64,000 nt of DNA from Ricinus communis (Eukaryota; Streptophyta; Magnoliopsida; Malpighiales; Euphorbiaceae). The notes beneath the pieces are model-generated. The model was not told where the DNA came from and ran no database searches. It saw nothing but the letters and a program-made list of their open reading frames with translations. The translations under genes were made by a program, and so were the position numbers. This document shows, in pieces, positions 22,520 to 54,740 of this stretch (positions are counted from its first letter, which is position 1; every line of letters starts with the position of its first letter). The DNA lies in NCBI RefSeq assembly GCF_019578655.1, contig NC_063258.1, positions 3,782,001-3,846,000 of the forward strand, given 5' to 3'.

Positions 22520-22521
22520 AA

Positions 22522-26605: not shown

Positions 26606-26611
26606 AGTTTT

Positions 26612-32710: not shown

Positions 32711-35073
32711 TGTCACAACCGAATTTATTTATTTATTTTTAATTAATAATTAATATTTATTAGCATGTCATTAAACATGTCATTTGCATCATAATTATAT
32801 ATGACCTATTTTATTATATTATGTGGTAGATAAATAAATTATTTAGTTACATATTGATTTAATTGAAAAGTAATGATTTTGGACTAAATTGGAAAGTTAG
32901 AAAGAAAGGGGATTAAATTGTAAAATTTCCTATGTTTACACCAATTTACCACCTCTTCATTTCTTCATTTCTACATATACTTTCTATTGCCTCTTCTTCT
33001 TTGTCTCTCTCATTCTTCTCCTTTTCTTCTTTAAACCTTGATTTCTTAATCAAACTCTACAAACTTTTAGTAATTGAGAATCTATTTCTTCTTGTAAATT
33101 TGAAAGATTTGTGCTTTCATAATCAAGGGAAACAAAGGTGAGTACTTTTAATTTCTTTGTTTTGCTGTAAATTAGGATTCATGATATGAAATTATTGATG
33201 ATTATGTGTTTTGGAATTATTTTAGTCAAGAGTGAACATGCTATTATTTGTGATCTTGAAGCTGAAATTTCTGGGCAGAATTTTTCACCTCTGATTTCGT
33301 GACCTTAGAGGCTTAATCTCGAAAATTTCTAAAAATAAAAGTTATAGGTATATGTTTCAGGAATATTTCTGTAAAATGGTTTTGCAGAACATTGAGTGAG
33401 TATGAACTTATAAGGTGTCGAATTGTTGCTGCTCTGTTTGTGGTTCAGCAGGTGACCTGGTTTTTGTGCTAACATTTTGAGGCATTTAGAGGCTGAACCA
33501 AACAAAGAGTTAAGCATAAAAGTTGTTCATTTATGTATCTAGTATTTGTCTGTAAAATTTCATAATTTTTGGTTGAGTATAACGTGAGATATATTGAACT
33601 TAATATGGCATGCTCGAAACTGTTTTAAGCAAAAATTGGACTTAGGATTCAGAAATTTGTTACTAATTATGTGTTTCACAACTTGAGCTAGAGAAGTCTA
33701 AATTGAGTAAAATTAGTGTCTATAGAAACTTTAGGATGTTAAGTTTATATCTGCAGAGTTTCATCAGAAAATTTATTCATTTGGCTGGTCATTTAATAGG
33801 AAAATATTTAATGTTCTGTTTAAAAGGAAATTAGAGCAGCTGTATTGAAAATACCATAACTATTTTTATACCAATGATTTTGAAGTGATTCTTTCTGCTA
33901 TGGTTTCTATAAAAATGGAAGTATAATTCTGAAGAAGATGAGATTTTTATTAATTGTACATAAGTTTTAGTGTAATTTCTAAGTCAGTACCTACAAGCTG
34001 CCTTCATCAACAAATATGTTGATTTATTGTCATTCATCTCATGCATCATATTAACATCAAGAATATATGTTATTTTATTGAAATATGATGTTTTATGGAT
34101 ATTAAATATATGTATATTTATGCCTTGTGATTGAATTATATTTGTATTGAACATGTGAATAGGTTCATCCAAAGGCAAGGAAGTGGTAAGAGAAAAAGAA
34201 TAGGATTACTTTGTTACCCTATAAATTTTGGTAAGTATTTAATAGACTAAACTTTATGTATATTGAGTAGGAACTGTTGTTTGATTACTTGATAATCTCT
34301 TGGTTGAGTGAGTTAATATTGATTATATTTTTGGCCTGTTGTAAAGTGAATCGATTGTGATGTATTGTGAAGTGAATTGATTGTGATTAAGGATTGATGA
34401 CTCTTGAATGGATATTTTATGATCGGAAAAGCTGAGTTGGGCGGATAGCTACTCGAGTATGTGAGATGGCAAGACTGAACCGGGCGGATAGTCTTGTCAA
34501 GTGGTCACTAAAATTTGAAAATGTGAGGAAGTGTGAGGATGAGTCATCTAATCCTAATTTGATAGAAATAATATGGAATTGAATAATTTGACTTGGTTGA
34601 GTTTGAGATTATTTGCATTATGTGAGATGAAATTATTTGTTTTTGAGAATAATTGAAATGGTTGATTTTGTGATTGTCAGTTAAGTGTTGGTATAATTTT
34701 CTGTATTTGATAAAGACTTGATATTTCTAGCCTAATATACTATAGTTTAGTAAATTAAATGCTTATTGAGTCACTAGCTCATTCCTTAGCAATTTTTTCC
34801 AGGTTAGTGCAGTTGTAGATAGCCTTAGTTTTGCATTACTCTCTTTGCATCAGTCAATATTATCAGGTGGGCCAGAGGAGTTATCTCAAGCATTGGGGCA
34901 TTTTAGGTACTTGTGTGAATTAAACTAATGTATAAATATTCCTTATGTATATTAAGTATGTTACGCCACTTAAATTGTATAAATGTATATTGTAACTAAG
35001 TAATAAATTATGTTTATAAAGTTAATTATATATATATTGCTATACAATTGGATGTTTAAGTTGGGGTGCTACA
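32711..35073 (+). mobile_element. solo LTR inserted in the Athila element
   Basis: It starts TGTCACAACCGAATTTA and ends GTTGGGGTGCTACA, about 2.36 kb, with no PBS, coding region or second LTR. A pair of related GGGCGGATAG segments sits at 34440-34495. The start and end pattern (TGTCACAACC...GGTG.TACA) is common among Tekay-type Ty3 LTRs. It interrupts the CGTGTT tandem array, which resumes at 35074. No clean target duplication: CACGA before it, CATGG after. Confidence 0.75.
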
Positions 35074-35196
35074 CATGGCCCCGTGTTGCCTCAACACGGG
35101 CATTTTTATCAAACTGGTAAGTTAGCACATTTAAGTCCATTCAACACGGCCCGATATCCAGACCGTGTTCAACAACACAACGTGTTCCGGTCATTG

Positions 35197-35207
35197 TCTA
35201 TATAAAC
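35197..35207 (+). promoter_or_regulatory. possible internal TATA box ahead of the Athila downstream ORF
   Basis: TCTATATAAAC lies just after the CGTGTT repeat array and about 480 bp before the ATG of the downstream ORF, followed by a pyrimidine-rich stretch (35245-35275). It could drive a separate transcript. No experimental support can be read from sequence. Confidence 0.4.
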
Positions 35208-35685
35208 GAATTGATTTCTCAAGGGCCAAATTTTGGCCAATTCTCTAAACTTTCTCTCTTCTCTTTTATACTCATTTTGAATGTTTTGGATAGTGCATAT
35301 TTCAAGTAAATACCCTCCATCTTCATCTTCCATTCTTTGTTTTTGATTTTGGTTTTAGTTCAAATTTGTATTTTTGTGTGTCTGAATGTTTTTGTGTTTG
35401 TGTGATTTTGGTTTTGAATTTTGTTTTTTATTTAGTGCATTCGTTTACATTCATGTTTGTTGGTTTGCCTTGTGATGGATTATGACGAATTCAGACTACA
35501 TATGGATGAATTGAGAATTTAATTGGTTAGCACCATGGTTGGCAGTGTTGTGGATTGAATTTTCTTTGCAGGGCATTGAATGGTTTAACTTTATCGAGTT
35601 AAATCATTCGGTTTGTCCATTTTATGCCGTTATGCTGCCAGAATTTCGTTGATCCTTAGCACTAAAAATTTCTTTTTCAGGTACC

Positions 35686-37284
35686 ATGTCCACTAGACGA
35701 AGATCAGGAGTTTACAAGAGGAGGCAGACCAATGGTTCCTCTTCCTCTCGATCCTTATGTGCTGCACCGACTAGTTCCGGCCTAGTTAGACCACCGCAGC
35801 GCCATAGATTCCTACTTTTCCATGGGCAGCCCACCTTTGAGCAGAGATACCAGTCGATGAGACACAAAGATTTAGAAAAGGGGCGTAGCATAGACTGGCC
35901 AGCACTAGAGACCGTCGGACTTGCAACTGCAATCCGCTGATACCTTGAGACGCCCTCGTTTCAACGTTTCTTTGAGATAGTTGAGCCGACATATAGGGAG
36001 TTGACTGTGGAGTTTGCTAGCACTTTCTTTCTACAGAGCCAATTGCGGGACTTTCAGCAGCCGGATGCTATTAGTTTCAGACTAGCAGAGCGGACTTTCA
36101 CGATGAGTGTACATCAGTTTGGAGTACACTTGGGTTTATGGACTGAGGAGGATGTAGTTGGGGAGGTATATAGTGGCTGTATACACACGCCTGGTATGGC
36201 TTTTCCGCAGATGTGGGCTGAGATTTCTGATGACGCTGAGGGGTACAGTGCCAGCCAGTCCAAGGCGTCTAACTTGCCTGAGGGACTGTGGTACTTGTAT
36301 GCATTGCTGACTAGGACCATCACTGGCAGGGGAGACAGAGGTGGTGTAGTGACCCAGACGGACCTATTTATACTTTACAGCATGCACCAGCGCCAATCAG
36401 TCGACATGAGATACTTGTTGGCCAGACAGATCAGTGCCTTCTGCAACAACTCAAAGAAGGTATTTTTCTGTTTTGGGACTTACATTACTCGGCTCGCTAG
36501 GAGCTTAGGGGTTTTGGAGGAGGCAGTACCACATTTGACAGAGCTGGGGGTGATGGAGACTTTAGGACTTCCCCAGTTGGTTAGTATGGGGATGGTGACT
36601 CGTAGGTAGGGTTCGCTAGGACCAGAGTATAGACTGAGGAGTGCTCTCTTGGCAGCACACGGAGAGGAGCGACCTGCCCTACGAGCCCCTGGTACACAAG
36701 ATGTTCCACCTCCTTCTTCTGATATTCTAAAGTCTTCCTCCAGACCGTCTACTTCAGCTGTTTTAAGAGTCTCTCCTATTGAGTTTAGAGAGCTGCAGCT
36801 TAGAGTGCAGAGGTTGGCAGAGGAGCAGCAACAGCACTTCATTCGAGTAGAAGCTTTTCAGCAGGACCTTTTACAGCGTGAGGCTGAGTTTCAGAGCCAA
36901 ATGATGGCTCAGTTTGAGAGGCAGATGGCTATGCTTCAGGCCCTGATTAAGCATGAAGGTAGGTTAGAGGCCTCTATGGCCACTGATATTTTTGATGATA
37001 TTTTTGCTACAGATTATGCCCCTGCCAGTCCACGGAGCCGGGTTTCAGTACAAAGCCATTTTGACATCCCTCTAGTGGATGATCCAGTTGAACTTTCTTC
37101 TCCGACTGAGCATCCTTCACCAGAGCAGCCTGATGAGCCTCCTACCGACGTTGTTCCTGCTGACCCACCAGCTCCTACAGGTGACACTACTTCCGACCCT
37201 CAGCGAGTATCCACTCCTCCACCACAGACTAGCCAGCGCCCTGATATCCTTGATGATGCACCTCTTTTCTCTCCGGAGCCATAG
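35686..37284 (+). pseudogene. Athila downstream ORF (Athila ORF-1 family / env-like position), broken
   Basis: One frame of 532 codons with two internal stops, 35938-35940 and 36607-36609. The middle part (LAERTFTMSVHQFGVHLGL) matches the Athila ORF-1 type domain, which I recall from Arabidopsis Athila elements. Codons about 365-430 (ELQLRVQRLAEEQQQHF onward) look like a coiled coil rich in Gln/Glu, and the C-terminal 90 codons are Pro/Ser/Asp-rich. No signal peptide or clear membrane span is visible, so calling it an envelope protein rests only on position. A pyrimidine tract and AG (35670-35680) end five bases before the ATG, which would suit expression from a spliced transcript. Confidence 0.8.
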
Positions 37285-38792
37285 TCAGGGCATTATTAGT
37301 TTTTTTTCCTTCCTTTTTCATTTCTTATATTATTTTTTTGTACACTGGGGATAGTGTGTTCTTCAAGTGTGGGGTGGGTGATAGTTATATACACTTATTT
37401 TCTTGTATTTTGTTTATCTTTTAGCTTTATTTATCTTGTGTGTTTTTTATTTTGTTTTTATTGTTCTTGTATATAAAATTTGGATCCTTTTCTAGTGTAT
37501 ATATCGCATTTCATTTATTCCATCTCAGTTATTTGTTTATTCTTTGTGCAATTTTTTAAAATTTTGAAATTTTTTCACTTTGTTTCGATGCTCTTACTGT
37601 TGACTTGCTTTTGAAATCTTGTTTATGTCCATGTGATTGGATAAAATCGATAGTGTTGAGTCTTGCGAAAGAATATAAGTTATTTAGTTTGAGTTTTGCA
37701 CTAAGTTGTTTTAGTTTATTTAATTCTGTTTTGATGATTTTTGTTTGGAACCTACTCAAAAAGCACACTTGTGAGAAATTGAGCCTCAATTGTAAACATA
37801 CATTTTATATGCTTTTATTTATTTCTTGTTGAGAGTGCCAATTACTGTCTTTACTTTTAGAACTTGCTTGATAATGCTTATGAGGGCCACAAAGAGAGTT
37901 TAACACTTTGGTATGATAGAGGCACTAAGGTTTTTCATTCTAGCCAAATAGCCTTCATTCGTTCATTGATTCAGTAGTTAACCCCTTCTTTCATCATTTC
38001 TATCATATTTTATTATCACTTAGTTTTATTCTGCTTTGGGTTATGATTTTGCATATGAGTTGTTTTTATTGGAAATTTTTATTTTGGAAATAGCGTTGGA
38101 AACTTGTAGTAGCTTCCATCAATCCAAAAGAAATTCACTCTATTATGTGAATGTTTCTTCCCTTATATATATAAAAAAATAATAAGAAGAATAAAAGGGA
38201 AGGGTGATGAAAAGAAAGAAAGTAAGTGAGCTAATTATTTAATTGCTTTTGGGAGTTTACATTTGGACTTGATTCCTATTTCCCACCTTGGACTACTATT
38301 TATTGTTTATCCCTTGTGATTATTGTGGCTTGTGTGCAGGTCATTTATCTCATTGCAGAATACCATAGGTTCAACTTTTACCAAATTTACCTACCCCTAC
38401 CTAATCCCCATTACAACCCTTATAAAGACCTCTTGACATGGTTGTTGACTCTCCATAAGCATTAGGAGTAGGATTTAAGAGCAAGCACATAGTAAGTAAG
38501 GCAGTATTTGATGCATTGAGCGATTAAACACTACCCTTTAAACACTTTGAGTGATTTAGAGTGAATCTTGTGATGAGTTGGTTCTGAATAATTTTGTTGA
38601 GATAATATTTTATGAATCATTAACATCTTGGTTGTGATACTTGAATTGATTGCTTCGTTTCTTTTTGCTTGACTTATGCTTGTTAAGGATATGTGCATGA
38701 GCTCTCTAGCTTGTTTATCAGTTTAAGTATTGTTCCTTAGTGGTTTATTTTCCTTATTTTACTTTTAATTGCTTGAGGACAAGCAATGAGCT
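37285..38792 (+). other. Athila 3' non-coding region
   Basis: T-rich and non-coding, as usual between the downstream ORF and the 3' LTR of Athila elements. GAGGACAAGCAATGAG near 38775 and the adjoining polypurine tract AAGTGTGGGG (38793-38802) mark its end. Confidence 0.8.
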
Positions 38793-38802
38793 AAGTGTGG
38801 GG

Positions 38803-39155
38803 TGATTTGGTGTGCGTAGAATACACATATCTAAATGAGGTTTTTAAGGCTGATTTTATGTACATTTAGATGTGAATTGGTCCCAACACTCACTCTATGC
38901 GTCTGTTTATGTGCATTAGGTCCAAAAGAAGTCAAAGAGTGATAAAGGGAAGAATTGGAGCAGAATTGGACGTCAAAGTTACCGAAACAAGTCAAGTTCG
39001 CGCATGAGGAAGTTGAACACGACCATGTTGGTTTTAACACTGGTCGTGTTCCCAACACGTTCTGAAGATCAAGCCGTGTTCCCAACACGGGCACCAAAAC
39101 GGGCCGTGTTGGGTGCATTCGACAATAGAAAAAAGAAGCGTTAAAGAGCATGACC
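38803..39155 (+). repeat. right LTR of the Athila element, truncated
   Basis: Matches about the first 350 bp of the left LTR (TGATTTGGTGTGCGTAGAAT onward, including the CCGTGTTCCCAACACGGG block). It then breaks off within GAGCATGACCA, and copia sequence follows. About 1.1 kb of LTR is missing. Confidence 0.88.
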
Positions 39156-40651
39156 ATAAAGACAAGGCTAAGTAGCATGATGCAATGAAGGACGAGATGC
39201 AGTCATTGCAAGAAAATGGAACATGAGCTGGTGGAGCTTCCTAAGGGCCGAAAGACATTGAGGAGCAAATGGGTGTTCAAGCTAAAGAGAGATGGAAATG
39301 GAGAGCTTATGAAGTACAAAGCCCGATTGGTAGTGAAGGGTTTTGGGCAAAAGCAAGGTATCGACTTTGAAGAGATTTTCTCACCAGTGGTGAAGATGAC
39401 TTCCATCCGTACAGTGTTAGGTCTAGTAGCTGGTTTGGACCTTGAGCTTGAACAACTTAACATGAAAATTGCATTCCTTCATGGTGGCTTGGAGGAAGAG
39501 ATCTATATGGTGCAACCGGAGGGATTTGAAGTAAAAGGAAAAGAGAACATGGTCTGCAAATTGAAGAAGAGTCGTACAAGAAGTTTGACTCTTTCATGAT
39601 GAGTCATGAGTACCAGAGAACCAAGGCAGATCCATGTGTTTACTTCAAAAGACTTGCAAATGAAAAATTCCTAATCCTTTTACTTTATGTTGATGATATG
39701 TTGATTGCAGTACAAGATGCTCAGATGATAGCCATGTTGAAGAAGGAGATGTCCAAGTCATTTGACATGAAGGACATGGGCCAACCGCGCTAGATATTGG
39801 GCATGCAGATTACCCGTGACAGAAAAGCTAAGAGATTTTAGTTGTCACAAGAGAAGTACATTGAAAGGGTGCTTGAGAGATTCAACATGAAATGAGCAAA
39901 GGAAGTAAACTGTCCACTTCCTAGCCATTTGAAATTGAGCAAGAAACTGTGTCCATCTATAGAGAAAGAAAAGGATGAAAGGTCAAGTATGCCATACTCC
40001 TCAGCAGTAAGGAGTTTGATGTATGCGATAGTTTGCACCATGTCAGATATAGCTCATGCAGTTGATGTGGCAAGTAGATTTCTCTCTAATCCCAGAAAAT
40101 AACATTGGGAAGCAGTGAAGTGGATCCTTAGATACCTAAGAGGCACTTCCAAGTTGTGTTTGAGTTTTGGAAAATGTGAATCTATGCTAGAAGGCTACAC
40201 AGATGCTGATATGGCTAGTGATCTGGATCACAAAAAGTCTATTTCGGGTTATGTGTTTACTTTTGCAGGGGGAGCCATGTCGTGGCAATTCAAACTGCAG
40301 AAATGTGTGGCTTTGTCGACTATAGAAGCAGAATACATTGCAGCAACTGAAGCTGGCAAGGAGCTATTGTGGTTGACTAGATTGCTCATGGAGTTTGGTA
40401 TGCAACAGGAAGAGGCAGTTGTTTTCTGTGATAGCCAGAGTATCATAGACTTGAGCAAGAATGCTAGGTATCATTCTAGAACTAAGCACATTGATGTGAG
40501 ATTTCATTGGTTGAGAGATGCTATAGAGTACCAACAGATGAAGCTGAAGAAAATTCACACTGATAAGAATCCGTCAGACATGTTGATGAAGATAGTTCCG
40601 AGAAATAAGATTGAGCTTTATTTCCGGCTTGTCGGCATGGATACCAAGTGA
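39156..40651 (+). pseudogene. copia reverse transcriptase and RNase H (broken)
   Basis: Resumes the copia polyprotein: LVELPKGRKTLRSKWVFKLK, KARLVVKGFGQKQGIDFEE, FSPVVKMTSIR and DLELEQLNMKIAFLHG. At about 39566 a small deletion joins KLKKS to the Tyr-Lys-Lys-Phe region out of frame, removing the segment that normally holds the conserved YGLKQAPR motif. The catalytic LLLYVDDMLIA is present at 39683. Stops at about 39791, 39839, 39893 and 40100 follow. The RNase H part from 40115 is open: GYTDADMASDLDHKKSISGY, LSTIEAEYIA, NARYHSRTKHIDVRFHWLR, ending in VGMDTK at 40651. Confidence 0.9.
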
Positions 40652-40684
40652 TGACTTGAAGATCGGCGTGCCTCTCTCCATGGG

Positions 40685-40697
40685 TTGGAGGGGGAGA
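40685..40697 (+). other. polypurine tract of the copia element
   Basis: TTGGAGGGGGAGA directly precedes the 3' LTR, in the place and form usual for Tnt1-like elements. Confidence 0.85.
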
Positions 40698-40698
40698 C

Positions 40699-41310
40699 TT
40701 TTGGTGTTGGGCCAAGTTGGGTCCAGCCTAGAAATCACAAAAAAAATAAATAAATAAATCCCTTCTCTTTCCTCATTTTTTTATGCGACAGAGAGGAAGA
40801 TGCAAAGAGAGAAGGAGAGAGAAATAAAAGGTGGTGAAGAAGAAGAAAACGAAGAGAAAGGCGATCTCTTTGATTCAATTGCCTTGATTGAGTTTCTCCC
40901 AATTTGTAAGAAGAGTATTTCTTGGTTTTCTCAAATCTAGGGTTTGCTTGAGTTTGGATGAGATTGGGGTTTGAAGCGGGTATTTCCTGCAATGTGTTAC
41001 CTCTTGTATTATTTCTCTATTAGCAAGTATATACCTCAAGTTTAGGACTAAAACTTGAGAAGAACAATTGTACCCGTTTTGCTGGTATAGTGAAAATTTG
41101 CCGGTGTATCCTGTGGTTTTTTACCCTCCAAGTTGAGAGGGTTTTCCATGTAAATGTGGTGTTTCTTGTGTGATTGTGCTTGATTGTTTATTTATTTTCT
41201 TAAATATTGAACCTTTGGTACCAATTAATACGATGCTCAATTTAACCCATTTCTCATTGATTGATTACACAATTGCTCTTATTTGTTATTGAAAGGTAGA
41301 AACCCCAACA
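40699..41310 (+). repeat. 3' LTR of the copia element
   Basis: 612 bp, colinear with the 5' LTR but with many substitutions and a few indels, including an extra TAGTGAAAATTTG segment near 41088. It is followed by the target duplication ATTAC at 41311-41315. Confidence 0.92.
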
Positions 41311-41315
41311 ATTAC

Positions 41316-42130
41316 AGGTTGCAGAACATTTGAATGGAAGGAAAGTTTCTGTAAATCAAATAACTAAACCGTTTGTATTAAAGTAACATACAGTGACAAA
41401 CTGCAAGAAGAAAATGATTTTACCCATTTTTATCCTTACTGTATAAAATACCTTCTTTTCTATTTAAATAACTTTGTAGCCCAACATATAATCATTGCCA
41501 TCAATACGTATCAAACCCTACCTATACAGCCTGTTTTTTTAATGGCCCGCTACATTACTGCTCAAGTAGCGGCCCGTGACACCTATCAGCCTCCCTTGAT
41601 CGTTACAAAGATAATACAGTTCAGAAATATATTTAAATATACAATAAACCAGTAGGGATATTAGGTGAAATAATTATAGAAAGCACAAGAACTTAAATAT
41701 GGGTTTTGCTTTTCTTCTCTTTTTAACTCAAACTCAAATAAATAACTAACCATGTAAAGGTTTGTTGGTCTCTTATTTTACTGCATGATCCTTAATGTCC
41801 AAGTGTAGTTTTATTTTGTTCAAGAATTTCTCCAATTTATTAAGTAGGAAAATAGATTATATTTTAGGTAAATTCGAGAATGTTGTTATTATGATAACTT
41901 TTCAATTTTATTATATATTTATTTAAGGAAATTTTTTATAGAATTCGAATCAAATTTATATAAAATATTTTAATACATATTTTTATATAAAATTATATAC
42001 TAAAATACTATTATGTGAATTTTTTTAATTTTTTTATATAAATTAATTTAAAATCTTATAATTTTTATTTAATAAATACATAAAAAATATTAAAAAATCA
42101 CTATGCTCTATAATTTATTTATATTTTAAT
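41316..42130. other. AT-rich intergenic DNA
   Basis: No gene recognised. The first 300 bp continue the sequence that lay next to 21897 before the copia element inserted; the rest is A/T runs. Confidence 0.55.
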
Positions 42131-42471
42131 ATAAATTTCAATTTATTTTTTGTGTTTTTCTTTTTTACTCAATCTTGATTTATCATATTTTAATTCTTAA
42201 TTTTAATTTTAAATTGAATAATTAATTGATTTTCTTTATGAAAACTTCAATTATATTTGAAAAATAAGAGTTATTATATTGAGTAACAAATCTCAATTAT
42301 TAATTTTATATTTAGTGGTAAAGATTTTACCCACATAATTTGTTAATAGAAGCACCAGCACATAGAATCTTATTCCAAAACATTATTCCCCGTAGGGTGT
42401 CAGTTAGAAATCAGTTTTCTTTCTTAACTAATTTGTGCTTTTGGAGTCGATTCACGCAAATAAAGGAAAAT

Positions 42472-42480
42472 ACACGTGTC
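42472..42480 (+). promoter_or_regulatory. G-box/ABRE-like site upstream of copy 1
   Basis: ACACGTGTC contains a CACGTG G-box. Copy 2 has AACGTGTC at the same place (51000-51007), keeping the ACGTG core but not the full palindrome. Both are followed by ACTAAAATA. Confidence 0.45.
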
Positions 42481-42559
42481 ACTAAAATAAAGCGAGTATG
42501 ATGACGTTATTCATACTCTCAACTGAAAAACACATATACAACTACAACCGCCTCCTCCT

Positions 42560-42657
42560 CCTGCTTCCTTCTTCACAGCATAAAAAAGTTTCCCTCTCTT
42601 TGACTGATACTCATTGCTCTTCTTCTGATCAGAGCAAGCTCTGACTGCCTTCAAAAT
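42560..42657 (+). other. 5' UTR exon of copy 1 (inferred)
   Basis: Pyrimidine-rich leader that ends at a donor (AAAAT before GTGAGC) and corresponds to 51077-51206 in copy 2 (AAAAC before GTAAGC). The next acceptor is TTTATAG at 43230-43236, five bases before the ATG. The leader intron would be about 580 bp. The start of the exon is a guess from the TATA position in copy 2. Confidence 0.5.
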
Positions 42658-43241
42658 GTGAGCAACGACAACAGCAGCAGCGGATTCATGAAATACGAGC
42701 TTCAAATCTGAAATTTCTTCTTCCAAATTCTGTAGCCCTAACTGTATTTCTCTTGTATGTTTTATTTTTTTTACTTTGTTTCAGATTCTTATGGCTCTTG
42801 GCGTTTGTTTGTGATGCTTAGTTGATCATTAATAAGCAAGCTTCAGCCTCATTTTGCGTTGTTGCATGCCGTGCGTTTTTGTTGGCTTCTCTTCTCTCTT
42901 TTTTTTTTTTTCTTGAGTTCTTTTAGATGAAACGAGTTCTTTGTTACTAATCAAGCTTGACTCTCTGTTTAATTTGGAAACTGTAGCTTGCTTTCTTTTT
43001 ATAACTTGTTTTCTGCTGCTAATTATTTGTATATATTAAGTTGCATATGCATCAACGTTGTTCTGTGATTTCCCGTCATAATAATCACTTTCTGTTTCTG
43101 ATAACGTACGTGATTCTCCATTTTTTGTTTGAAAATCATAGCTGTTTTTGCATCTTTTTTTTTTCCAAAAAAAAAAAAGTATCTGTAGCTGTTTGTTCAA
43201 TGCACTTGTTACTTGATATTTATTAATTATTTATAGTGACG

Positions 43242-44948
43242 ATGGATACTGCTAAACTTAAAGATTATCACGCTGCCAACGACTTATTGCCTGAATTCGA
43301 CGATTCTGGAGCTCTCCGTCGTCAATCGACGTCAGTGCTTCCTGGTATGTAGCTCTCTCTCTTGTGTTTTAAATTTGTTGATGAGCACGCATGCTTGTTA
43401 ATGAATCGCTATAAATGAAAAGAAATAATAATATTATTTGTTATTTTATTTATCAGATGCAAAATTGTTTAGCATTTTGAGTAATGAAGCTGTGTACTCA
43501 TCGGAGATTAAAGAGAGTTTCATGAGGAAAGTGTTCGTTTTCATCAGCTCCTGCAGTTTACCCGAGAATGAGAATTTAGACTCTCGTCTCTTCAGAATCA
43601 CTCTCATGGTACGTAAATTAATGATTACTTAAACCTTCGCTCACATATATCTAACATGTAAATTGCACATAATTTGATTTTGTTATATTTTTTTTAAATT
43701 TTTGCTTTCTGTAATCGACAGTATGCAGCAGATGAACATAAGTGTGTTTCTGTGGAGTTTGTGTTTGAACAAAGCTCAATTTCTGTCAGCAATATGCAGC
43801 AGCAGGAGAATCTCAAATGCTCTGTAACAACTACTGTATCTGATCATGATCTCTGTGACTGCTCATTTCAGACTTACAATTTTCCAGGCACGGCTTACTA
43901 ATTTTAAAACTTCACTAAAGTCAAGTTCTCTTTATGATATTTGCAAATTAACCCGTGAGTTTTTCCTAATTGGATATTGATTTAGTTATATTATATATAT
44001 GCTGTACTGAGATAGGAGCAGGCGAAAGATTGCAGGAGAAATGGGATGCTAATTTGCCTCACATTAATCGTGATGACACAAAGCTACTCGCTCTCAAATA
44101 TTTGAAGGAAATATATGTTGTGGCCGTATGTCAGACTACGAATGAACAACAAAGGGAAGACTTGAGTCTTACTGATCAGCAAATATATGAGCTGCTCACT
44201 CACTTTGCTCCCATACAAGTGTGTGAGACAATGACTTCTTTTTTTTTTTTTTTTGACATTCAAACTTCGGTCCCTTCTCAAGTAAATTAAGATTTTATTA
44301 TATTTTTTTAATTCCTTTCTTCTTCTTTTTCTTCTTTTTGTGTAGGCTGTATTGCTAAATGGGACTCCTACAGGACAGCCAACTTTACAAGGTCATCATA
44401 ATGGAGGTGGAAATGATGGCGCAGGTGGGGGTTATCATGAGAATGGGGCTGCTGCTGGTGGTGCCGATAATGGTGATGGTGGTCCTGGTGCTGGTGCCGA
44501 TGATGGTGATGGTGGTCTTGGTGCTGATGCTGGTGATGGTGACGATGATGGTGATGCAGGTGGAGGTGGAGGTGGAGATGGAGATGGAGGTGGGGATGAT
44601 GAAGCTGCCAGTTTCGTATTTCTTATTCCAATATGCTTAAAGCCCCCTGATGACCTGTTGGTGGTGTTGAACTACGCTCCAATGTTTCAACTTGATTTTA
44701 TGACTTGAGATCTGTTCCTCAACATCCTCCACGCTCATTGGTGTAGCCGTACACATGAACAGCCACGTCAGAATGTTACTCGTGAGACTGTGTGGGCAGG
44801 TTACAGGGTAATCTTCCTTCGTGATCCGCCGGATGTGCATGGGCCTCAGCCTGTTGAAGAAAACAATCTGGAATTGGATTTCGATGGTGATTGGGCTCAC
44901 TTTAAGCAATTCATTTCGGTGATTATCGTTGAAGTAGAGGCAGATTGA
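43242..44948 (+). pseudogene. unrecognised plant gene, copy 1 (premature stop)
   Basis: Exons 43242-43344, 43457-43608, 43722-43887, 44016-44218 and 44346-44948 match copy 2 exon for exon. The frame opens MDTAKLKDYHAANDLLPEF, continues through the N-terminal domain and a Gly/Asp-rich linker that is longer than in copy 2, and stops at a TGA (44706-44708) after FMT: 328 codons instead of about 408. The sequence after the TGA stays open and similar to copy 2 up to a TGA at 44946-44948. At the break copy 2 has CGA, so this is a C-to-T change at a CpG. The place of the copy-2 TATA box is altered here (ATATACAACTACAACC). I do not recognise the family. It may be a young pseudogene or encode a shortened protein lacking the C-terminal domain. 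Confidence 0.7.
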
Positions 44949-45200
44949 TATGAGAGTGACAATCAATTACAAGAGCTCTTGTCTAGCTCAGTACTGTTCT
45001 TTCCTCTCTTTTGGACATTAATTCGTTTTAGGGTATTATCTCAGAATTTCTATATACAAAAAGTAGTACTGATTGGTGATTGATTGATGCTTACAAGGAG
45101 TCAGTATTTCTTTAAATCTTGTTACAAGTACTGCAGGACTCTTGTGTTTGGCTGAAATATAGAAATAGAAATCTACACGTGCAGATTTTTGTCTGAATAC

Positions 45201-46699
45201 ATGACATTATTGGTTTCTATTTTTTTAATAAAATTTTTATTTAGTTTTATTATATATTTTTATTTATATATATTAAATAAATAAATGATTGATATATATT
45301 TATTAATTTTAAAAATTTAAATATGTGTCAATCATTCATTGCTTGCTAAAGTATAAAACACTTACATACATGTCATTTTTCTATTAATTATTTATATACA
45401 TTAAGCTGAGATAAAAAAAAATTTTAAAAATTTAAAATATATATGTCAATTATTTATCAGTTTGATATATAAGTAGGGATATACATCAAGCCTAAATAAT
45501 AATTTTTTTAATATTTTTTGATAATTTTTTTTCCTATTTTCGGTTAAGATTTATTAAATTTCTATTTTTAGAATATTCAAACTTTTAGAAAATGTTTAGA
45601 GAAAAAGTGTGTTTTTGGACTTGACGTTTCGGTCAATGAACAGATTTTTCCTTAAATAATTTTTTGGTGTAAATATATACTTAAATTCTTAAAAGCTATA
45701 ATTTAAAATTTTTTAATATAATAAAAAGTTGTAACAGTGTTGATGCGGCTAACGGTGGTTCAACATATACAATTTTCATTTATTTCTAATTAATTAAACA
45801 ACATTTTAATATTAAAAAGGAACCATTTCATTCTCTTTCTTTTTTCTTTTTTCTTTATTTTCATATCCCTTAAGAATTTGTAGAAAAATTAATAGCTTCG
45901 TGACAACCATAAATTCAAAATGTGAAGATGAGGAGCCATAATCTCAATCAATGCATTACTAATCTAATGAGACCTAAGAGTGTGTAAATATTTCTTCTAG
46001 TTTAATTAAAATTTCAAATTCGAATTTTAGGTATGTAGCTACGTCAGAACTTTTGAGGAAGTGCTTTGTCACCCATAAAATCCTGCCCGAAAATGAGAAA
46101 ATGAGACATGCCTACAGTCAGATAATTTTTAATTAATATTTCTTAATAATCAATAAATATTCAATACATAATAAGCACACGCTATTCACATAATAATATA
46201 AAATTAATTAGACATGAAAGTATAATATTCAAAAAAATAAATTAACTTGAAAATATATTATCCTTTAGGAATCAAAGAAGGTAGGAATACTGATATTTCT
46301 TTCATAAGTCTACAAAGTAAACATAAAACACTAAAAGATAAAAATAAAAGAAAGTACAAAATGAAAATAACTTGAACATATAAAAATAAAATATAATTAC
46401 TAAATTTATTGTCTATAGCTAGACATTTCTGATTATGCTCATAGTAGAAGTTCATCCATGTACTCCACCTCTTGGCTATAAGCTTTTCCTTTCAAGTATG
46501 GCTTTATACTCTTAATGAAAATATCTAAAAAGTGTCATGAAAACTCTTATCAATTAACAATGGAATATTGTCATATAATATATCATAAACAAGAGAATCC
46601 AAACAATCAACATATGAATATTTATCAATAATAGATTTAGGAGATAAAGTTAGAGTCAAACACTTTAAATTCTATAGTTTCTCCTAAATTTTTCATAAT
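45201..46699. other. AT-rich spacer between the duplicated genes
   Basis: No gene seen. Near 45312 and 45421 an imperfect direct repeat (TTTTAAAAATTTAAA, then a TGTCAAT block) is visible. Confidence 0.55.
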
Positions 46700-48980
46700 A
46701 AGTTTTTAATTATGTATATTAATAACAGTTTTAGTAGTTGCCATGAAAGGCATACCAAGGAGAACAATTTGCTCCTTATCCCTTACTGGTATATTTTTCA
46801 TATTAAGCACTACAAAATCAATAGGGATTATTAACTTACCTACTTGAACTAGTAAGTGTTTCACTATATCTCTAAGGTATTTCATTGATTTATCAATAAA
46901 TTGTAGAAACATGTTGGTTGGCTTCAACTCTCCCAAGCCAAGTTGTTCATAAATCAATTAAGGCATCAAGTTGATACTTGCTCCCAAATCCAACATGGCT
47001 TTTGTAACATTCTTATAACCCATTGTAATATCAATAGTGAAACTACTAGAATCCTTCATCTTAAAGGACAACTGATGTTGAAGCACTATACTTACTTTTT
47101 CTGACATTAGTACTTTTTCATTATTTGTATATCATCTTTTGTTAGTATTTAACTCTTTAAAGAACTTTATATACACTGGTTTATTCCTGATAACATCCAA
47201 TAAAAGTATATTAGTATTATATTTGAAGAGTATGTTAATATTTTTAGAAAATTGTTTATTCTTTTTGCTCTCTTTGAGTCATTTTGGAAAAGAAATAGGT
47301 GGTTTGTTAGGTTGAGCTGCCTCATTGAATACAAGTCTAGAAAAATGCTATTTTTTTTCCTTTTTAAGCCAAAGATTAGGCTCCACTTTTTCTTCCTTTT
47401 ACATGCTGTGATTTATATTCCTACTAATTCATCATCTTTAGATGTACCTACATCCAAAGAACTTATTTCAATTTTCATATCAACTTTATTATCAAATACC
47501 TTACTACTTTTGATAACAGTAATAGAATTGGCTTCTTCAGATCGACTTGATAATTTCTCTTTCTTGAGCTCTTGAACAATTTTAACAATTTATCCCATTT
47601 GATCTTCTAAATATTTCATTGAAACCTCAATAGATTCTGTCTTTTATTCATTCCTTTCCATCCTATCATGAGAAGTTATCATAAATGATTGAAGCTTTTT
47701 TTCCAAACTTAGCTTCCCTTGCATATTAGATTGAAAAGTTTGTCCTTAATTTTAAAAGAAAGGGTCTAAGTGCCTTTGGTATTGAGAGTCTTAGTTTTAG
47801 AAATGAGGTTGATTTGGGTTCCTTAATATTTATGGTGGGTTTTGGTCAATATTTTTCCAAAAAAAATCTGGATGGTTTCTTCAATCCATATTATATATGT
47901 TAGAATAAGGGTCATTCATAGGTTGTCTGAGTTGGTAAGAGTCTATCAAATAGCTTGTTCATACATATTTTTTGTACAATTATCAAAAGATGAACAAATT
48001 AGAAGAATAAATATTTGCACCATGATCATAAAGACTACATATGCCATATACCTCATTGCTTGGTGTATTTTTGGTTGAGGCAAGCATATTAACTTGCTTT
48101 GTTAATTTAGCAATTGCATGGCCATTTCACTACTAGCTATTATATTTACTTCTACTCTTTTTGTCTTCATATTCTTTTATTGTGAGTTAGCTCCTAACAT
48201 TTCAGAGATATCATAAACCTCATCAACTTTCCTTTCTAACATAGCACCTTACCTGCATTATCAACTATATATTAATATTATTGTGTTAACCATCATAAGA
48301 TGATTGCTTAGTTATTAGAAGTGGGTACCCATTATCTGAGTATTGTAGTAAAAGTAATTTGAAGTGATCTCATGCATGAAAGGACTCAGTATTCTTTTGA
48401 TAAAAATTAAAAATTTTAGCTCTTAATTCTTTAGTTTTTTAACGTGAGTAAAAATTACTCATAAATTTTTACTAAATTTCATCCCAAGTTCTAAAAGAAT
48501 TAAGAAGCAAAATCTTTAACTAAGCCTTTGCTCTTTCTTTCAATGAATAAGGAAAACACCTAATTCTCGATTGTTCCTCATTTAATCCAGATAATGGAAA
48601 AGTATGAACTATAGCATAAAATTCTCTAATGAATGTCAATGCATCCTCATTGGGCATACCATAAAATGAAGGAAGCATATTAAAATATGTATTTTTAAGT
48701 TCATAATTTCTATATACATCACCTAGAACTATATATAAAGTAGTCTTACCAATTATAGGCTAAGCATAATCCTTTATAACCATTTGTCTTTCAGCTGCTA
48801 CTTATCTTTGTTCATTTGCCATTATTTCAACCTCTTTTGCTGATTCTTCTTCAAATTCCTCAATTTCCTTTTTGTTTCTAGCTTTTGAGGAACAAACTCA
48901 CTCTCTACTTCTTAATTTTCTTCTGCATTTTTAATAGCTGATTTCAAGTTGTAGGGATTTTGAGTTAATTAATCACCTAA
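46700..48980 (-). pseudogene. Ty3 (Athila/Tat-like) gag and protease remnant
   Basis: Read on the minus strand. A gag stretch (about 48700-48400) includes EDALTFIREFYAIVHTFPLS and EEQSRIRCFPYSLKERAKA, the FPFSL..AK block of Ty3 gag. A protease stretch (about 47010-46706) includes DLGASINLMP, LGLGELKPTN, VGKLIIPIDFVVLNM and VLLGMPFMATTKTVI. Stops and frameshifts are frequent. No RT or integrase follows towards lower coordinates, so only the 5' part of the element survives. Its PBS and LTR lie directly upstream on the same strand. Confidence 0.75.
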
Positions 48981-49140
48981 TTTAATTTTTCTACTAGGCA
49001 TACAAATCAAAGAAGAATTTCTAAAACTTTAAAAACAAAATTTAAAAATAAAACACAGACACATAAACAAGATAAATCATAAAACAAACAAAAAAACACA
49101 AGACAATTTTGATAATCGATCAATATAATAAGATTTGAAC

Positions 49141-49169
49141 ACAGTTCTTTGACAACATCGCTAAGAACT
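49141..49169 (-). other. decayed primer binding site of the minus-strand Ty3 element
   Basis: On the minus strand, AGTTCTTAGCGATGTTGTCA and then AAGAACTG aligns with the TTTTTGGCGCCGTTGCCGGGGAACTG consensus of Athila/Tat-type elements, with G-to-A and C-to-T changes. It marks the LTR/leader junction. Confidence 0.6.
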
Positions 49170-49174
49170 TAATG

Positions 49175-50059
49175 TATAAGATTTAGTACTCGCAAGTGCA
49201 CAAACTGTTTTTATAGTAAATCGGTAAATTTACCTCGAGATTGATCCCTCAATTAACTATTAGACCACTTATTATAAGAACTAATTACCAACATAAAATA
49301 ATAAAAATAAATCTAAACACTCTTAAACTAATATTTTGAGAGAATATGAAGTTCACAAGTAAATAAAATAAACTAATAAAGTAAATATGTAGTGTTATAA
49401 TTTTAATAAGCTATATGATAAAAGGCAGTATATAGGCTAGCCAATTACTTAATAACCTCCTTATTTTAACCCTAAGAATAAATCTAATGAATGAGATGGT
49501 AAGATTTCTTTTTCTTTAATTACTTAAGAGAATGATGCAACTAAAGTTATTTATATCAACATAAATTGAAGCAAAAATGATGCCTCTAATACATTCAACC
49601 TAAATACTTTTTTATAACAATTATTAGTATTGAATTAGTATAATGGTTAAATAATAAAAATAACTGAAACTAATGAAGATATATTCATAAAGAAATCATT
49701 CATTAAATAAAAAGAACAATGTTTATATAAAGTAAATAGATTAAACCAAACACTTTAAAAAAAAAACTAGCCTAGTACATTTAATTCCATGATCATAGTA
49801 ATTAAACAGTTAAATATAAAAGTGAAACTGAAAATAAAAGCTCCCTCTAGATCTCGAATGAAAAAAAACGATTGATCTCCACTCTTCACTTCTCATAAAC
49901 CTTCTTGATCTTAAAAAAATAATAAAAATCTAAAACTAAATATTTGGAGAAGATGAATTGTAGATAGGATTGCAAGAATGGTAGACAAATGCAAAAGATA
50001 TAGCAGAGAGCAAATAGGAGAGACCTCTCCTCCTTTCTTTAGAACTTAGATTTACAAAG

Positions 50060-50097
<38 letters not shown>

Positions 50098-50290
50098 TGA
50101 GAGAGAGAGAGAGAAAATTCATCCATCCAAATAAATTTCTCCAAAAATAAATATATAAAATATAAATCTATCTGTTAGATAAAACTATAGATATCCTTAT
50201 CTTGACAAAATATTATCATATAATAACTATTAATATAAATCCTAATAATAATGTAAAATGACTAAATTCCTTCTCAGCCATATAAATTTA
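49175..50290 (-). repeat. LTR of the minus-strand Ty3 element (approximate)
   Basis: The sequence upstream of the decayed PBS, with the TTGTGCACTTGCGAGTACTA segment that often ends such LTRs. The outer end was not found, and the (TA)n(GA)n microsatellite at 50059-50114 lies within it. Confidence 0.4.
50059..50114. repeat. (TA)n(GA)n compound microsatellite
   Basis: About 11 TA repeats followed by about 16 GA repeats with one GTGA interruption. Confidence 0.92.
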
Positions 50291-51063
50291 GGCTAGGCTT
50301 TGTAAAATAGTCGGTCTATATATCTTACTCTTAGATCTTGATACAAACATGTCCAATTAAACTTCTTTTGAGTATTTTTTTCTATATTTATTTTAGCTAA
50401 TATTATCAGAAAATAGACACTAAAGTTTAAGTGAGATATAAATACTTATTTTCACCATATTTTATATATGAAATATATCATTAAGGTTCTAAAATATTTT
50501 AAATAACTATATATATTTTGAACCTTTAAATGTTTATTTTACCATTTATATCAATATGTATTTATTAATTTTCATTAATGAAATATTTATATTCTTTTAA
50601 ATTTTTTTCCCAATTAATTATATTTTATTTTTATATCAATTTCAATTTATTGTATTGTCTTTTATATTGATTAGACTTTTTAACTGAAATTCAAAATTAA
50701 AATTCTCTCAACATTGTTATTTTTAATTTTAGATTGAATAATTAATTAAATTTTATTAAAATCTCAACTAAATTTAAAAAAATAAATTATTATTATTAAT
50801 AAATAAACTTCAACCATTAATTTTAAATTAATATTAAAGACTATTATATATACATGGTTTTATCAAATATTAAGCAACAGCACAGTCTAGAATCTTAATT
50901 CAAAAAATTTATTCCCCTTGGGGTGTCAGTTACAAATCCACGTTTCTTCCGCAACTAATTTTTTGTCTTTTTGGAATCGATTCACACAAAATAAAAATAA
51001 ACGTGTCACTAAAATAGAGCGAGTGCACCATTGTTATTCATACTCTCAACTGAAAAAGACGCC

Positions 51064-51070
51064 TATAAAT
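51064..51070 (+). promoter_or_regulatory. TATA box of copy 2
   Basis: TATAAAT within GCCTATAAATACAACC, about 60 bp after an AACGTGTC site. The leader exon would then run to the GT donor at 51207, with a leader intron of about 610 bp ending at TTTATAG (51809-51815). Confidence 0.65.
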
Positions 51071-51820
51071 ACAACCGCCTCCTCCTGCTTCCTCCTTCAC
51101 AGCAGAAAAAAGTTTCCCTCTCTTTCTCTTCTTTCGTATTCCTCTGTCTGACTGATACTCATTTGCTCTTCTTCTCATCACAGCAAGCTCTGAACGCCTT
51201 GAAAACGTAAGCAACGACAGCAGTAGCAGCAGCATTACTTTTAATATATATATATTTTGAAACAGATTCATGAGATACGAGCTCCAAATCTGAGATTTCT
51301 TCTTCTAAAATCTGTAGCCTTAACTGTGTTTCTCTTCTTTTTCTTTATTTTTGTTATTTTTTCAGATCCTTTTGGCGTTCTGCGTTTGTTTGTGATACTT
51401 AGTTGATCATTAACAAGCAAGCTTCAACCTCATTTTTGCGTCCTTGCATGCCGTGCGTTTTTGTTGATTTCTCTCTTCTCTTCTCTTTCTTTTTTTTCTT
51501 TTTCTTTGAATTTTTGGAGATGAAACGGCTTTGTTCTCTGATACTAATCAACCTTTTTTTTTCTTCTTTTTTTTCTTTAACTTGTTTTCTGCTGCCAATT
51601 ATTTGTATATTCTAAGCTGCATACGCATCAGCGTTGTTTTGTGATTTCTCGTCATAATTATCACTTTCTGTTTCTGAAAATGTACTTGATTCTCGATTTT
51701 TCGTTTGAGAATCATAGCTGTTTTTGTATTTTTTTTTTTTTAAAAAAAAATGTATCTGTAGCTGTTTGTTTCATGCACTTGTTAATTGATGATTGATATC
51801 TTCTTTTATTTATAGTGACA

Positions 51821-53484
51821 ATGGATACTGCTAAGCTTGAAGATTATCACGCTGTCAACGACTTATTGCCTGAATTCGACGATTCTGGAGCTCTTCATCG
51901 TCGACCGACGTCAGATCGTCCTGGTAGGTAGCTCTTTCTCTTGTGTTTTAAAATTGTTGATGAGCATGCACGCTTGTTAAGGAATCGCTATATATGTTAA
52001 TTAATAATATTTTTGTTATTTGTTATTTGATTTATCAGATGCAAAACTGTTTAGCATTTTGAGTAATGAAGCTGTGTACTCATCGGAGATTAAGAAGAGT
52101 TTCATGAGGAAAGTAATCGTTTTCATCAGCTCCTGCAGTTTACCTGAGAATGAGAATGTTGACTCTCGTCTCTTCAGAATCACTCTCATGGTACGTAAAT
52201 TAATGATTACCTAAACCTTTGTTCACATATATCTAACATGTGAATTCCACATAATTTGATTTTGTTATTTTTTTTTTAAAAAATTTTGCTTTCTGTAATC
52301 GGCAGTACGCAGCAGATGATCATAAGTATGTTTCTGTGGAGTTTGTGTTTGAAGAAAGCTCAAGTTCTGTCAGCAATATGCAGCAGCAAGAGAATCTCAA
52401 ATGCTCTGTAACAACTACTGTATCTGATCATGATCTCTGTGACTGCTCATTTCAGACTTACAATATTCCAGGCAGGCTTAAGTTGTCTAATTTTAAAACT
52501 TCACTAAAGTCAAGTTCTCTTTATGATATTTGCAAATTAACCTGTGAGTTTTTCCTAATTGGATATTGATTTAGTTATATTATATATATGCTTTACTGAG
52601 ATAGGATCAGGCGAAAGATTGCAGGAGAAATGGGATGCTAATTTGCCTCACATTAATCGTGATGACACAAAACTACTCGCTCTGAAATATTTGAAGGAAA
52701 TATATGTTGTGGCCGTATCTCAGACTACGAATGAACAACAAAGGGAAGACTTGAGTCTTACTGATCAGCAAATATATGAGCTGCTCACTCACTTTGCTCC
52801 CAAACAAGTGTGTGAGACAATAACATTTTTCCTTTTTGAATTTAAACTTCTATCCTCTCAAGTAAATTAAGATTTTATTGTGTTTTTAATTCTTTTCTTC
52901 TTTTTTTTGTGTAGGCTGTATTGCCAAATGGGACTGCTACGGGACGGCCAACTTCACCGGGCGCACATCATAATGGAGGTGGAAATGATGGAGCAGGTGG
53001 GGGTTATCATGAGAATGGGGCCGTTGGTGGTGGTGCCGATAATGGTGATGGTGGTCCTGGTGTTGGTGATAGTTATGATGCAGGTGGAGATGGAGATGGC
53101 GGCGGGGATGGTGGAGGTGGAGGTGGAGGTGGAGGAGGAGCTGCCAATTTCGTATTTCTTATTCCGATATGCTTAAGGACCCCTGATGGCCTGTTGGTGT
53201 TGTTGAACCACGTTCCAATGTTTCAACTTCAATTTATGACTCGAGATCTGTTCCTCAACATCCTCCACGCTTATTGGTGTCTCCATACAAATGAACAGAG
53301 ACGTCAGGATATTACTCGGGAGACTGTGTGGCCAGGTTACAGGGTTAGCTTCCTTAGCGATTGGCCGGATGTGCATGGACCTGAACCTGTTGAAGAACAC
53401 GATCTGGAATTGGATTTCGATGGTGATTGGTCTTACTTTAACCACTTTCTTGCGGTGATTATCGTTGAAGCGGAGGCTGACTGA
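51821..53484 (+). CDS. unrecognised plant gene, copy 2 (intact, 397 aa)
   Basis: Exons 51821-51923, 52039-52190, 52306-52471, 52605-52807 and 52915-53484 join to 397 codons plus TGA. Introns are GT..AG except the third, which appears to start with GC (CCAG before GCAGGC); copy 1 also has GC there. Residues 1-34 are a short leader (MDTAKLEDYHAVNDLLPEF). Residues about 35-208 form a mixed alpha/beta-looking region with LFSILSNEAVYSSEIKKSF, a Cys pair in DHDLCDCSF, and the helix-rich end DDTKLLALKYLKEIYVVAV. Residues about 209-284 are Gly/Asp/Asn-rich with a run of 10 Gly. Residues about 285-397 are acidic and aromatic (NFVFLIPICLR, MFQLQFMTRDLFLNILHAYW, DLELDFDGDWSYF). No signal peptide or membrane span. 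I do not recognise the family; any function would be a guess. Confidence 0.75.
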
Positions 53485-53768
53485 TATGAGAAGCGGCAAT
53501 TACAGGAACACTTGTCTAGCTCAGTACGGTACAGTACAGTTCTTTCCTTTCCTTCCCTTTCCTTTCTTTTGGACATCAATTCTTTTAGTTGGGTATTATT
53601 TCAGAACTTCTACATACAAAAAGTAGTGCTGATTGGTGATTGATTGATGCTTATAAGGAGTCAGTATTTCTTTAATTCTCGTTATAAGTACTGCAGGAGG
53701 ACACTTATGTTTGGCAGAACTATAAGAAATAGAAATCTACACATGCAGATTATTGTCTGAATATATGA

Positions 53769-54740
53769 GTATGGGACCCTATTTTTGTATACTATGGATC
53801 TTAAATGCATCAATTTCCTAACAGTTTGTAAACTAATTGTGTCATTATTATGACTTTATGAGAAATTTGAGAGATCCTTCGCAATCAAATATTGATTTTT
53901 CTCATTTTGGGGTTTTTGACAATTATTTATAATTTCAGAGTAAATTTTTGGTTCAATTACCACTTTAGAAAAGAAAAAAATTGGTTCAACATCTTGATAT
54001 TATGTGTCTACCTGTCCATCAGGCGGACATAAAATGCCCTGGTATGCATTTTTTGTACCATGCAGGCCGTTGCATTCTACTTTTTATTCTCCTTAGTTTT
54101 TTCTTTTTTAATTTCCCTTATTTATATACACGCATATTTATTAAAAGAAAATATCCCTTTAGTTTCTTCTGAGAATAATTTATGTAGTCTCGCTAATAAT
54201 TTTATTATGGATAATTTACTATTTGGGTTCTGTATTTTTTTTATATTATATTAATTATTTTTAATTTTTTTATTTTATAATTTTATGGTAGAAAAATTTT
54301 CTGTCGGAATTCTAGTTGTAGAACCGTTAATCCTGTTTGGTTTTATGTAATTTGTGGTCTGATATTTAATATAATATACAGATTGTCTTTTATAGTTTAT
54401 TATTATACTAGAACATCTTTTGGCTAATTTTTTTACAAAAATTAAGTTTAGTGTTTGTATACTTATAGTATATTAAATCTTAGTAAAATCTAAATATCTT
54501 AAAAAGTATTTATATTTATCAAAATAGAAAATTTATATAATTTAATTTTAAATTATTAAAATAAGATAGATGTTATTCGTAGAAATAAGTAAAGAAATAT
54601 TATGTGGTTTTATCATTTAACAATTTAGAATAATGATTTCTTTTTAGACAGAAAAAGGCACGTGATTAAAAATATGACAAAATAAAGTATTTTGCTCTTA
54701 AAAAGTATCCATTGGTAAGAATTTGGCTATTTTTACTCAG
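53769..54740. other. AT-rich intergenic DNA
   Basis: No gene or clear repeat. The short open frames near 53981 and 54060 have low-complexity, chance-like translations. Confidence 0.55.

What the first reader, a model, noticed from the sequence alone, without database searches (positions are those of the whole stretch)
42130..53768. Directly duplicated gene of an unrecognised family
Two five-exon genes with matching exon lengths (103, 152, 166, 203 nt, then a long last exon) lie 5.4 kb apart in the same orientation. The protein has three parts: an N-terminal domain of about 170 residues, a Gly/Asp linker and an acidic, aromatic C-terminal domain of about 110 residues. I recognise neither domain. 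The order of conserved blocks and intact splice sites in copy 2 argue for a real gene. This is the best candidate for something undescribed in the window.
Basis: partly seen in the sequence, partly recalled or inferred. Interest (0 to 1): 0.75.

Follow-up and report, generated by a model that had tools for sequence, protein, structure and literature searches.

The report
Duplicated castor-bean gene, no recognised relatives
Two side-by-side copies of a castor-bean gene with no relatives found so far outside that plant are really there; one copy could still make its protein, the other is interrupted by a stop signal, and what the protein does remains unknown.

Summary
Two direct copies (42111-45227 and 50615-53789, 82% identical) carry the same five coding exons: 103, 152, 166, 203 nt, then 603 or 570 nt. 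The DNA is Ricinus communis: the only protein hits are the predicted RCOM_1299180 (copy 2) and RCOM_1299390 (near copy 1, not identical). No significant Pfam, NCBIfam or PDB relative; AlphaFold models are unusable (mean pLDDT 31.5 and 43.4). 'Unrecognised family' stands within the searches' limited sensitivity. Corrections: (1) copy 1 is interrupted by TGA at 44706 and lacks copy 2's TATA box. (2) The five-exon model needs a GC-AG intron 3; canonical frame-keeping donors exist but score weakly, and the nearby GTGAGT donor would break both copies. (3) The N-terminal half looks conserved largely because 43434-44232, introns included, is homogenised. Coding selection: no indel in 966 coding nt where about 9 were expected, yet Ka/Ks is 0.84 in the C-terminal domain. 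Best reading: a fast-evolving orphan gene, tandemly duplicated, copy 2 probably coding, copy 1 decaying. Function is not established; a binding or adaptor role is a guess.

The parts
42111..45227 (+). duplicated unit, copy 1 (upstream region, five coding exons, 3' region)
   Evidence: blastn against copy 2, 82% identity
50615..53789 (+). duplicated unit, copy 2
   Evidence: blastn against copy 1
43242..43344 (+). copy 1 coding exon 1 (103 nt)
43457..43608 (+). copy 1 exon 2 (152 nt)
43722..43887 (+). copy 1 exon 3 (166 nt, GC donor)
44016..44218 (+). copy 1 exon 4 (203 nt)
44346..44948 (+). copy 1 exon 5 (603 nt): linker and C-terminal domain, interrupted
44706..44708 (+). in-frame TGA in copy 1, codon 329 of 408
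   Evidence: ORF end
51064..51071 (+). TATAAATA upstream of copy 2; no TATAAA or TATATA in 42470-42619 of copy 1
51207..51815 (+). inferred intron in the 5' untranslated leader of copy 2 (GTAAGC ... TTATAG), ending 5 nt before the ATG
   Evidence: read from the sequence; inference
51821..51923 (+). copy 2 exon 1 (103 nt)
52039..52190 (+). copy 2 exon 2 (152 nt)
52306..52471 (+). copy 2 exon 3 (166 nt, GC donor)
52472..52604 (+). copy 2 intron 3, GC-AG, 133 nt; contains an alternative GTGAGT donor at 52544 that would give a stop at the junction
52605..52807 (+). copy 2 exon 4 (203 nt)
52915..53484 (+). copy 2 exon 5 (570 nt): Gly/Asp linker and C-terminal domain, stop codon included
43434..44232 (+). 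stretch of copy 1 unusually like copy 2 (35 mismatches in 799 aligned nt), exons and introns alike: probable gene-conversion tract
   Evidence: 0 of 2000 shuffles reach its score

Best explanation
A tandem duplication (probably unequal crossing-over; inferred) of a fast-evolving protein-coding gene known so far only from Ricinus communis. Shown: two direct copies with the same exon structure; copy 2 open for 397 codons if intron 3 is GC-AG; copy 1 interrupted by TGA and without copy 2's TATA box; a tract across exons 2-4 and their introns that is far more alike than the rest. Inferred: copy 2 is still translated, copy 1 is decaying, and the tract is gene conversion. How the protein works is not shown. 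My guess, about 0.25, is a non-enzymatic binding or adaptor protein: a strand-rich N-terminal module joined by a flexible acidic Gly/Asp tether to a small alpha/beta C-terminal module that was free to change its surface.
For: Same exon lengths and 82% identity. No indel in 966 aligned coding nt (exons 1-4 and C-terminal domain) against 31 in the non-coding parts; scaled per substitution 8.9 were expected (P 1.4e-4), and 5.2 of frame-breaking size (P 0.006; 0.012 with low-complexity stretches left out). One of the 31 is a gap at the alignment's end; without it 8.6 and 4.9 are expected (P 1.8e-4 and 0.008). The three linker indels are all multiples of 3. Residues 1-208: Ka/Ks 0.43, 19 non-synonymous of 30 changes, one-sided binomial P 0.03. 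Intron 3 is T-rich (0.39 and 0.48 in its two parts) as the other introns are (0.44-0.52), unlike exons (0.25-0.32). GC-AG makes up 1.49% of plant introns (PMC7072748, passages). Only Ricinus hits in the protein database.
Against: No transcript data. The C-terminal domain shows no constraint on amino acids (Ka/Ks 0.84; 30 differences, copy 1's stop counted as one, against 30.2 expected in a neutral simulation), and for residues 1-208 the same simulation gives only P 0.074. The public gene models do not agree with the five-exon model: RCOM_1299180 skips exons 2 and 3, RCOM_1299390 shortens exon 3 by a canonical GT-AG route and predicts an intron over the place of copy 1's stop. GC-AG introns are rare. 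The lack of coding indels does not tell when the frame was kept: it may have been lost recently. No usable fold, so the mechanism is a guess.
Confidence: 0.55

Rival explanations
1. Both copies are pseudogenes. The working ancestor ran exon 3 on to the GTGAGT donor; with that donor copy 2 has a stop codon at the exon 3/4 junction and copy 1 has a frameshift (net 5 nt indel) as well as its TGA.
For: The frame of copy 2 stays open across the extra 72 nt up to the GTGAGT; the two donors score alike (5.5 and 5.1 bits); C-terminal Ka/Ks 0.84; the two public gene models each needed a different splicing route.
Against: It would leave an intron of 61 nt, below the usual plant minimum of about 70 nt (recalled); the extra stretch has T 0.39, between exons (0.25-0.32) and introns (0.44-0.52); no other frame lesion in copy 2, and fewer coding indels than long neutrality predicts.
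Confidence: 0.25
2. Not a true orphan: a fast-diverged member of an old plant family whose relatives fall below the reach of the searches. (Overlaps with the best explanation; the odds do not add up to 1.)
For: Five exons and a probable leader intron are more than a newborn gene usually has (established knowledge); the protein search needs shared exact 5-residue words, so relatives below roughly 40% identity can be missed (my estimate).
Against: Jatropha, Manihot and Hevea genomes are annotated (PMC8056531 passages), and an ordinary gene would be alike enough to be found (recalled); 250 and 35 candidates scored up to E 10 gave only the Ricinus proteins.
Confidence: 0.4
3. The C-terminal part is a PB1-like (beta-grasp) interaction domain, perhaps derived from a Mutator-type transposase N-terminus.
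For: An acidic DFDGDW motif and a plausible strand/helix order near it (resemblance recalled); in the weak model strands 7-15, 71-76, 109-116 with a helix 39-54.
Confidence: 0.08
4. Not a protein-coding gene: an artefact of ab initio prediction over a duplicated non-coding stretch.
For: No transcript evidence; public models disagree with one another; weak amino-acid constraint.
Against: Frame kept between copies that differ at 330 of 2126 sites outside the tract, shared splice sites, in-frame linker indels.
Confidence: 0.08

Closest known systems
RCOM_1299180 and RCOM_1299390, hypothetical proteins of Ricinus communis (public annotation)
   Same: RCOM_1299180 has exons 1, 4 and 5 of copy 2 without a difference; RCOM_1299390 is close to copy 1: 6 aligned residues differ, 2 of them at its own predicted splice junctions
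   Different: Their gene models splice differently; RCOM_1299390 is probably a third copy or an allele, not exactly copy 1 (inference); no function is given
Taxonomically restricted (orphan) plant genes
   Same: No relatives found outside one species; rapid change
   Different: Five coding exons and a probable leader intron; absence from other Euphorbiaceae was tested only through predicted proteins
PB1 / PB1-like domains
   Same: Acidic DFDGDW motif, loosely similar order of elements (recalled lead)
   Different: No profile hit, no usable fold

Membership tests
PB1 or PB1-like domain | match to the family profile (Pfam) | tested here: not met
   no PB1 hit for the C-terminal part at E up to 10; HMMER filters drop most weak matches
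PB1 or PB1-like domain | beta-grasp fold | tested here: inconclusive
   AlphaFold pLDDT 43; fold searches without a meaningful match
Taxonomically restricted gene | no detectable relative among predicted proteins of other species | tested here: met
   only Ricinus proteins, with limited sensitivity; no relative in 2 scans of viral contigs and 1 of prokaryote genomes
Taxonomically restricted gene | absent from the DNA of close relatives | not testable with these tools
   no other plant genome could be searched as DNA
Tandem gene duplicate | same orientation, shared exon structure, flanks included in the duplication | tested here: met
Pseudogene (copy 1) | disabled reading frame | tested here: met
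   TGA at 44706, codon 329 of 408
Pseudogene (copy 2) | disabled reading frame | tested here: inconclusive
   open with the GC-AG intron and with some weaker GT donors, stopped with GTGAGT
Pack-MULE or other DNA transposon capture | terminal inverted repeats bounding the unit | tested here: not met
   one search lists 25 of 33 and 25 of 51 pairs, AT-rich, 70-90% complementary. One pair (42064-42103 / 45242-45281) lies just outside copy 1; extended (42024-42103 / 45242-45321) it scores 53, reached by 0 of 1000 shuffles of one arm and 4 of 500 of both (wider stretches), but by 79 of 1500 pairs of AT-rich stretches from the window, and the same edges score 55 in direct orientation. At copy 2's edges 975 of 1000 shuffles reach the score; a wider look there gave an AT-rich match reached by 6 of 500
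Expressed gene | transcripts | not testable with these tools
   no RNA data held

The most novel reading that the evidence does not exclude
A castor-bean-restricted family of two-module proteins whose C-terminal module keeps its reading frame but changes amino acids as fast as neutral DNA, as expected of a protein under diversifying selection (for example in defence or reproduction), with gene conversion holding the N-terminal module alike across copies.
Probability: 0.2. Interest if true: 0.5.

Novelty: new member of a known kind. Interest (0 to 1): 0.3.

Why it matters
If copy 2 is translated, it is a protein without known relatives in a well-studied oil crop, with a built-in comparison: a decaying twin, a homogenised half and a free-changing half. 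That would make it a usable case for how orphan genes arise, change and die. If both copies are dead it is a pair of decaying duplicates that gene prediction turned into unlike hypothetical proteins.

Tried and rejected
Internal repeat: hhalign found a short likeness between exon 4 and the C-terminal part (TNEQQREDLS / TNEQRRQDIT; probability 0.58%). Shuffles: 51 of 2000 reach the score for copy 2, 1450 of 2000 for copy 1. Rejected as chance.

Terminal inverted repeats: an AT-rich inverted match just outside copy 1 looked significant against shuffles of one arm (0 of 1000) but not against AT-rich background from the window (79 of 1500). Rejected.

Weak profile hits (HEAT_ULK4, RM5_Med14, Imm65, AKAP28, Fuz_longin_1, EF-hand_12, DUF7116; best E 0.0069, each below its cut-off) and PDB hits at E 0.15 or more were not followed; several change with the piece or copy submitted, while HEAT_ULK4 recurs for the copy 2 pieces that hold exon 4.

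Viral or bacterial origin: no relative in viral contigs (2 scans) or prokaryote genomes (1 scan).

Literature, in the open-licence PMC library held: no paper with RCOM_1299180, RCOM_1299390 or a tag beginning RCOM_12993; searches on orphan, tandem, genome and GC-AG papers gave listings; passages were seen in PMC7072748 and PMC8056531. No paper was read whole.

Scripts that stopped with an error: after printing the NG86 values; its segment part was rerun; after the two edge alignments; its background test was redone.
Full report
What is there. Two direct copies lie at 42111-45227 and 50615-53789, 82% identical over 3277 alignment columns, 5.4 kb apart. Both give the same coding exons: 103, 152, 166 and 203 nt and a last exon of 603 nt (copy 1) or 570 nt (copy 2). 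Copy 2 then reads 397 aa without a stop; copy 1 has 408 codons with one in-frame TGA at codon 329 (44706-44708), which removes most of the C-terminal domain. Upstream, copy 2 has TATAAATA at 51064, a pyrimidine-rich leader and a probable leader intron 51207-51815 ending 5 nt before the ATG (reading); no TATAAA or TATATA was found in 42470-42619 of copy 1.

Whose DNA. The only protein hits are RCOM_1299180 and RCOM_1299390 of Ricinus communis, each listed on a contig of 994,805 bases, probably the same one. RCOM_1299180 has exons 1, 4 and 5 of copy 2 without a difference. RCOM_1299390 differs from the copy 1 model at 6 aligned residues, 2 of which (124, 321) lie at its own predicted splice junctions. 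Its tag lies 21 steps of ten from the other, although the two copies here are 8.6 kb apart; a third copy or an allele is my inference. The window's genome could not be searched (15 unanswered calls, listed in Tried and rejected).

Intron 3. The five-exon model depends on a GC donor after exon 3 (CAG|GCAGGC in copy 2, CAG|GCACGG in copy 1). Of the GT and GC donors tested with two acceptors it is the only frame-keeping one above 2 bits that adds no stop, in both copies (donor frequencies are recalled approximations). Canonical donors that keep copy 2 open exist but score at most 1.7 bits, among them the one (0.85 bits, 381 aa) that matches the splicing of RCOM_1299390. The GTGAGT 72 nt downstream scores about as well as the GC donor (5.1 against 5.5 bits), but used with the same acceptor it gives a stop codon at the junction in copy 2 and a frameshift in copy 1. 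T content of the disputed stretch is 0.39, between exons (0.25-0.32) and introns (0.44-0.52); the rest of intron 3 has 0.48. The GTGAGT intron would be only 61 nt. GC-AG is 1.49% of plant introns (PMC7072748, passages). I favour GC-AG, but RNA is needed. The public models avoid the problem by skipping exons 2-3 or by shortening exon 3.

Is it coding? Between the copies there is no indel in 966 aligned nt of exons 1-4 and the C-terminal domain, while the non-coding parts have 31 indels against 258 substitutions; scaled to the 74 coding substitutions, 8.9 were expected (P 1.4e-4) and 5.2 of frame-breaking size (P 0.006, or 0.012 with low-complexity stretches left out). One of the 31 is a gap at the alignment's end; without it the figures are 8.6 (P 1.8e-4) and 4.9 (P 0.008). 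The linker has three indels, all multiples of 3, but it is made of triplet-like repeats, so this says little. Substitutions tell less: NG86 Ka/Ks is 0.42 over the whole, 0.43 for residues 1-208 (one-sided binomial P 0.03) and 0.84 for the C-terminal domain (P 0.45). A neutral simulation expects 21.8 amino-acid differences in residues 1-208 against 18 seen (P 0.074), and 30.2 in the C-terminal domain against 30, the stop counted as one. So the frame has been kept for much of the time, but amino acids in the C-terminal domain have changed at about the neutral rate.

Why the N-terminal half looks conserved. Copy-to-copy differences are 35 in 799 aligned nt over 43434-44232 and 330 in the other 2126; none of 2000 shuffles gives such a stretch. 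Introns 2 and 3 within it differ at 14 of 241 sites; introns 1 and 4, which lie mostly outside it, at 33 of 219.

Transposon origin. An AT-rich inverted match lies just outside copy 1, but it is not beyond AT-rich background of the window (79 of 1500 pairs score as high, and the same edges score higher in direct orientation), and copy 2 has no equivalent at its edges. I do not read the units as captured by a transposon.

Function. Nothing here shows it. A strand-rich N-terminal part (seen only in a model of pLDDT 31.5), an acidic Gly/Asp tether and a small C-terminal part that changes freely suggest a binding or adaptor protein rather than an enzyme; I put this at about 0.25. The DFDGDW motif recalls PB1 domains, but the profile test failed. 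Kept frame with fast-changing residues leaves diversifying selection open, which is the novel case; relaxed constraint is the simpler reading.

Verdict. A real duplicated gene of castor bean without recognisable relatives, already in the public annotation as hypothetical proteins; one copy is broken, the other probably but not certainly coding. Worth a transcript check, not a discovery as it stands.

Noticed in passing
window 21901-41311: Copia-type element with LTR-like repeats at 21901-22520 and 40697-41311 (85% identical; Pol_BBD and gag_pre-integrs at 23.2 kb) holding Gypsy-type ORFs at 28.6-32.2 kb (aspartic protease by Pfam; the rest by reading), so probably nested insertions; the right repeat ends 800 bases before copy 1.
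   Followed up: partly
window 27312-27417: Rfam match to plant snoR71 on the minus strand (45.8 bits, cut-off 40) inside the nested retroelement region, an odd place for a snoRNA; may be captured or a chance match.
   Followed up: no
window 35941-36609: Below cut-off match to Transposase_32 (putative plant transposon protein, E 1.5e-5).
   Followed up: no
window 17643-18972: Minus-strand exons of an HhH-GPD (base-excision repair type) gene (E 0.0022, below cut-off, for 17646-18374; no hit for 18460-18972); a possible synteny marker for finding the locus in other Euphorbiaceae.
   Followed up: no
window 430-8661: Plus-strand ORFs with TPR-like peptides that resemble a TFIIIC (GTF3C3-type) subunit; recalled resemblance; the one ORF tested (6605-6994) has no Pfam hit.
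   Followed up: no
window 46700-49100: Looks like a degraded Gypsy-type fragment on the minus strand between the two copies (reading; the one ORF tested gave no retroelement hit).
   Followed up: no
P0002 (RCOM_1299390); window 43242-44948: At copy 1 residues 207 and 245 RCOM_1299390 carries the residue of copy 2 rather than of copy 1, which points to a third copy or an allele, perhaps with conversion.
   Followed up: partly
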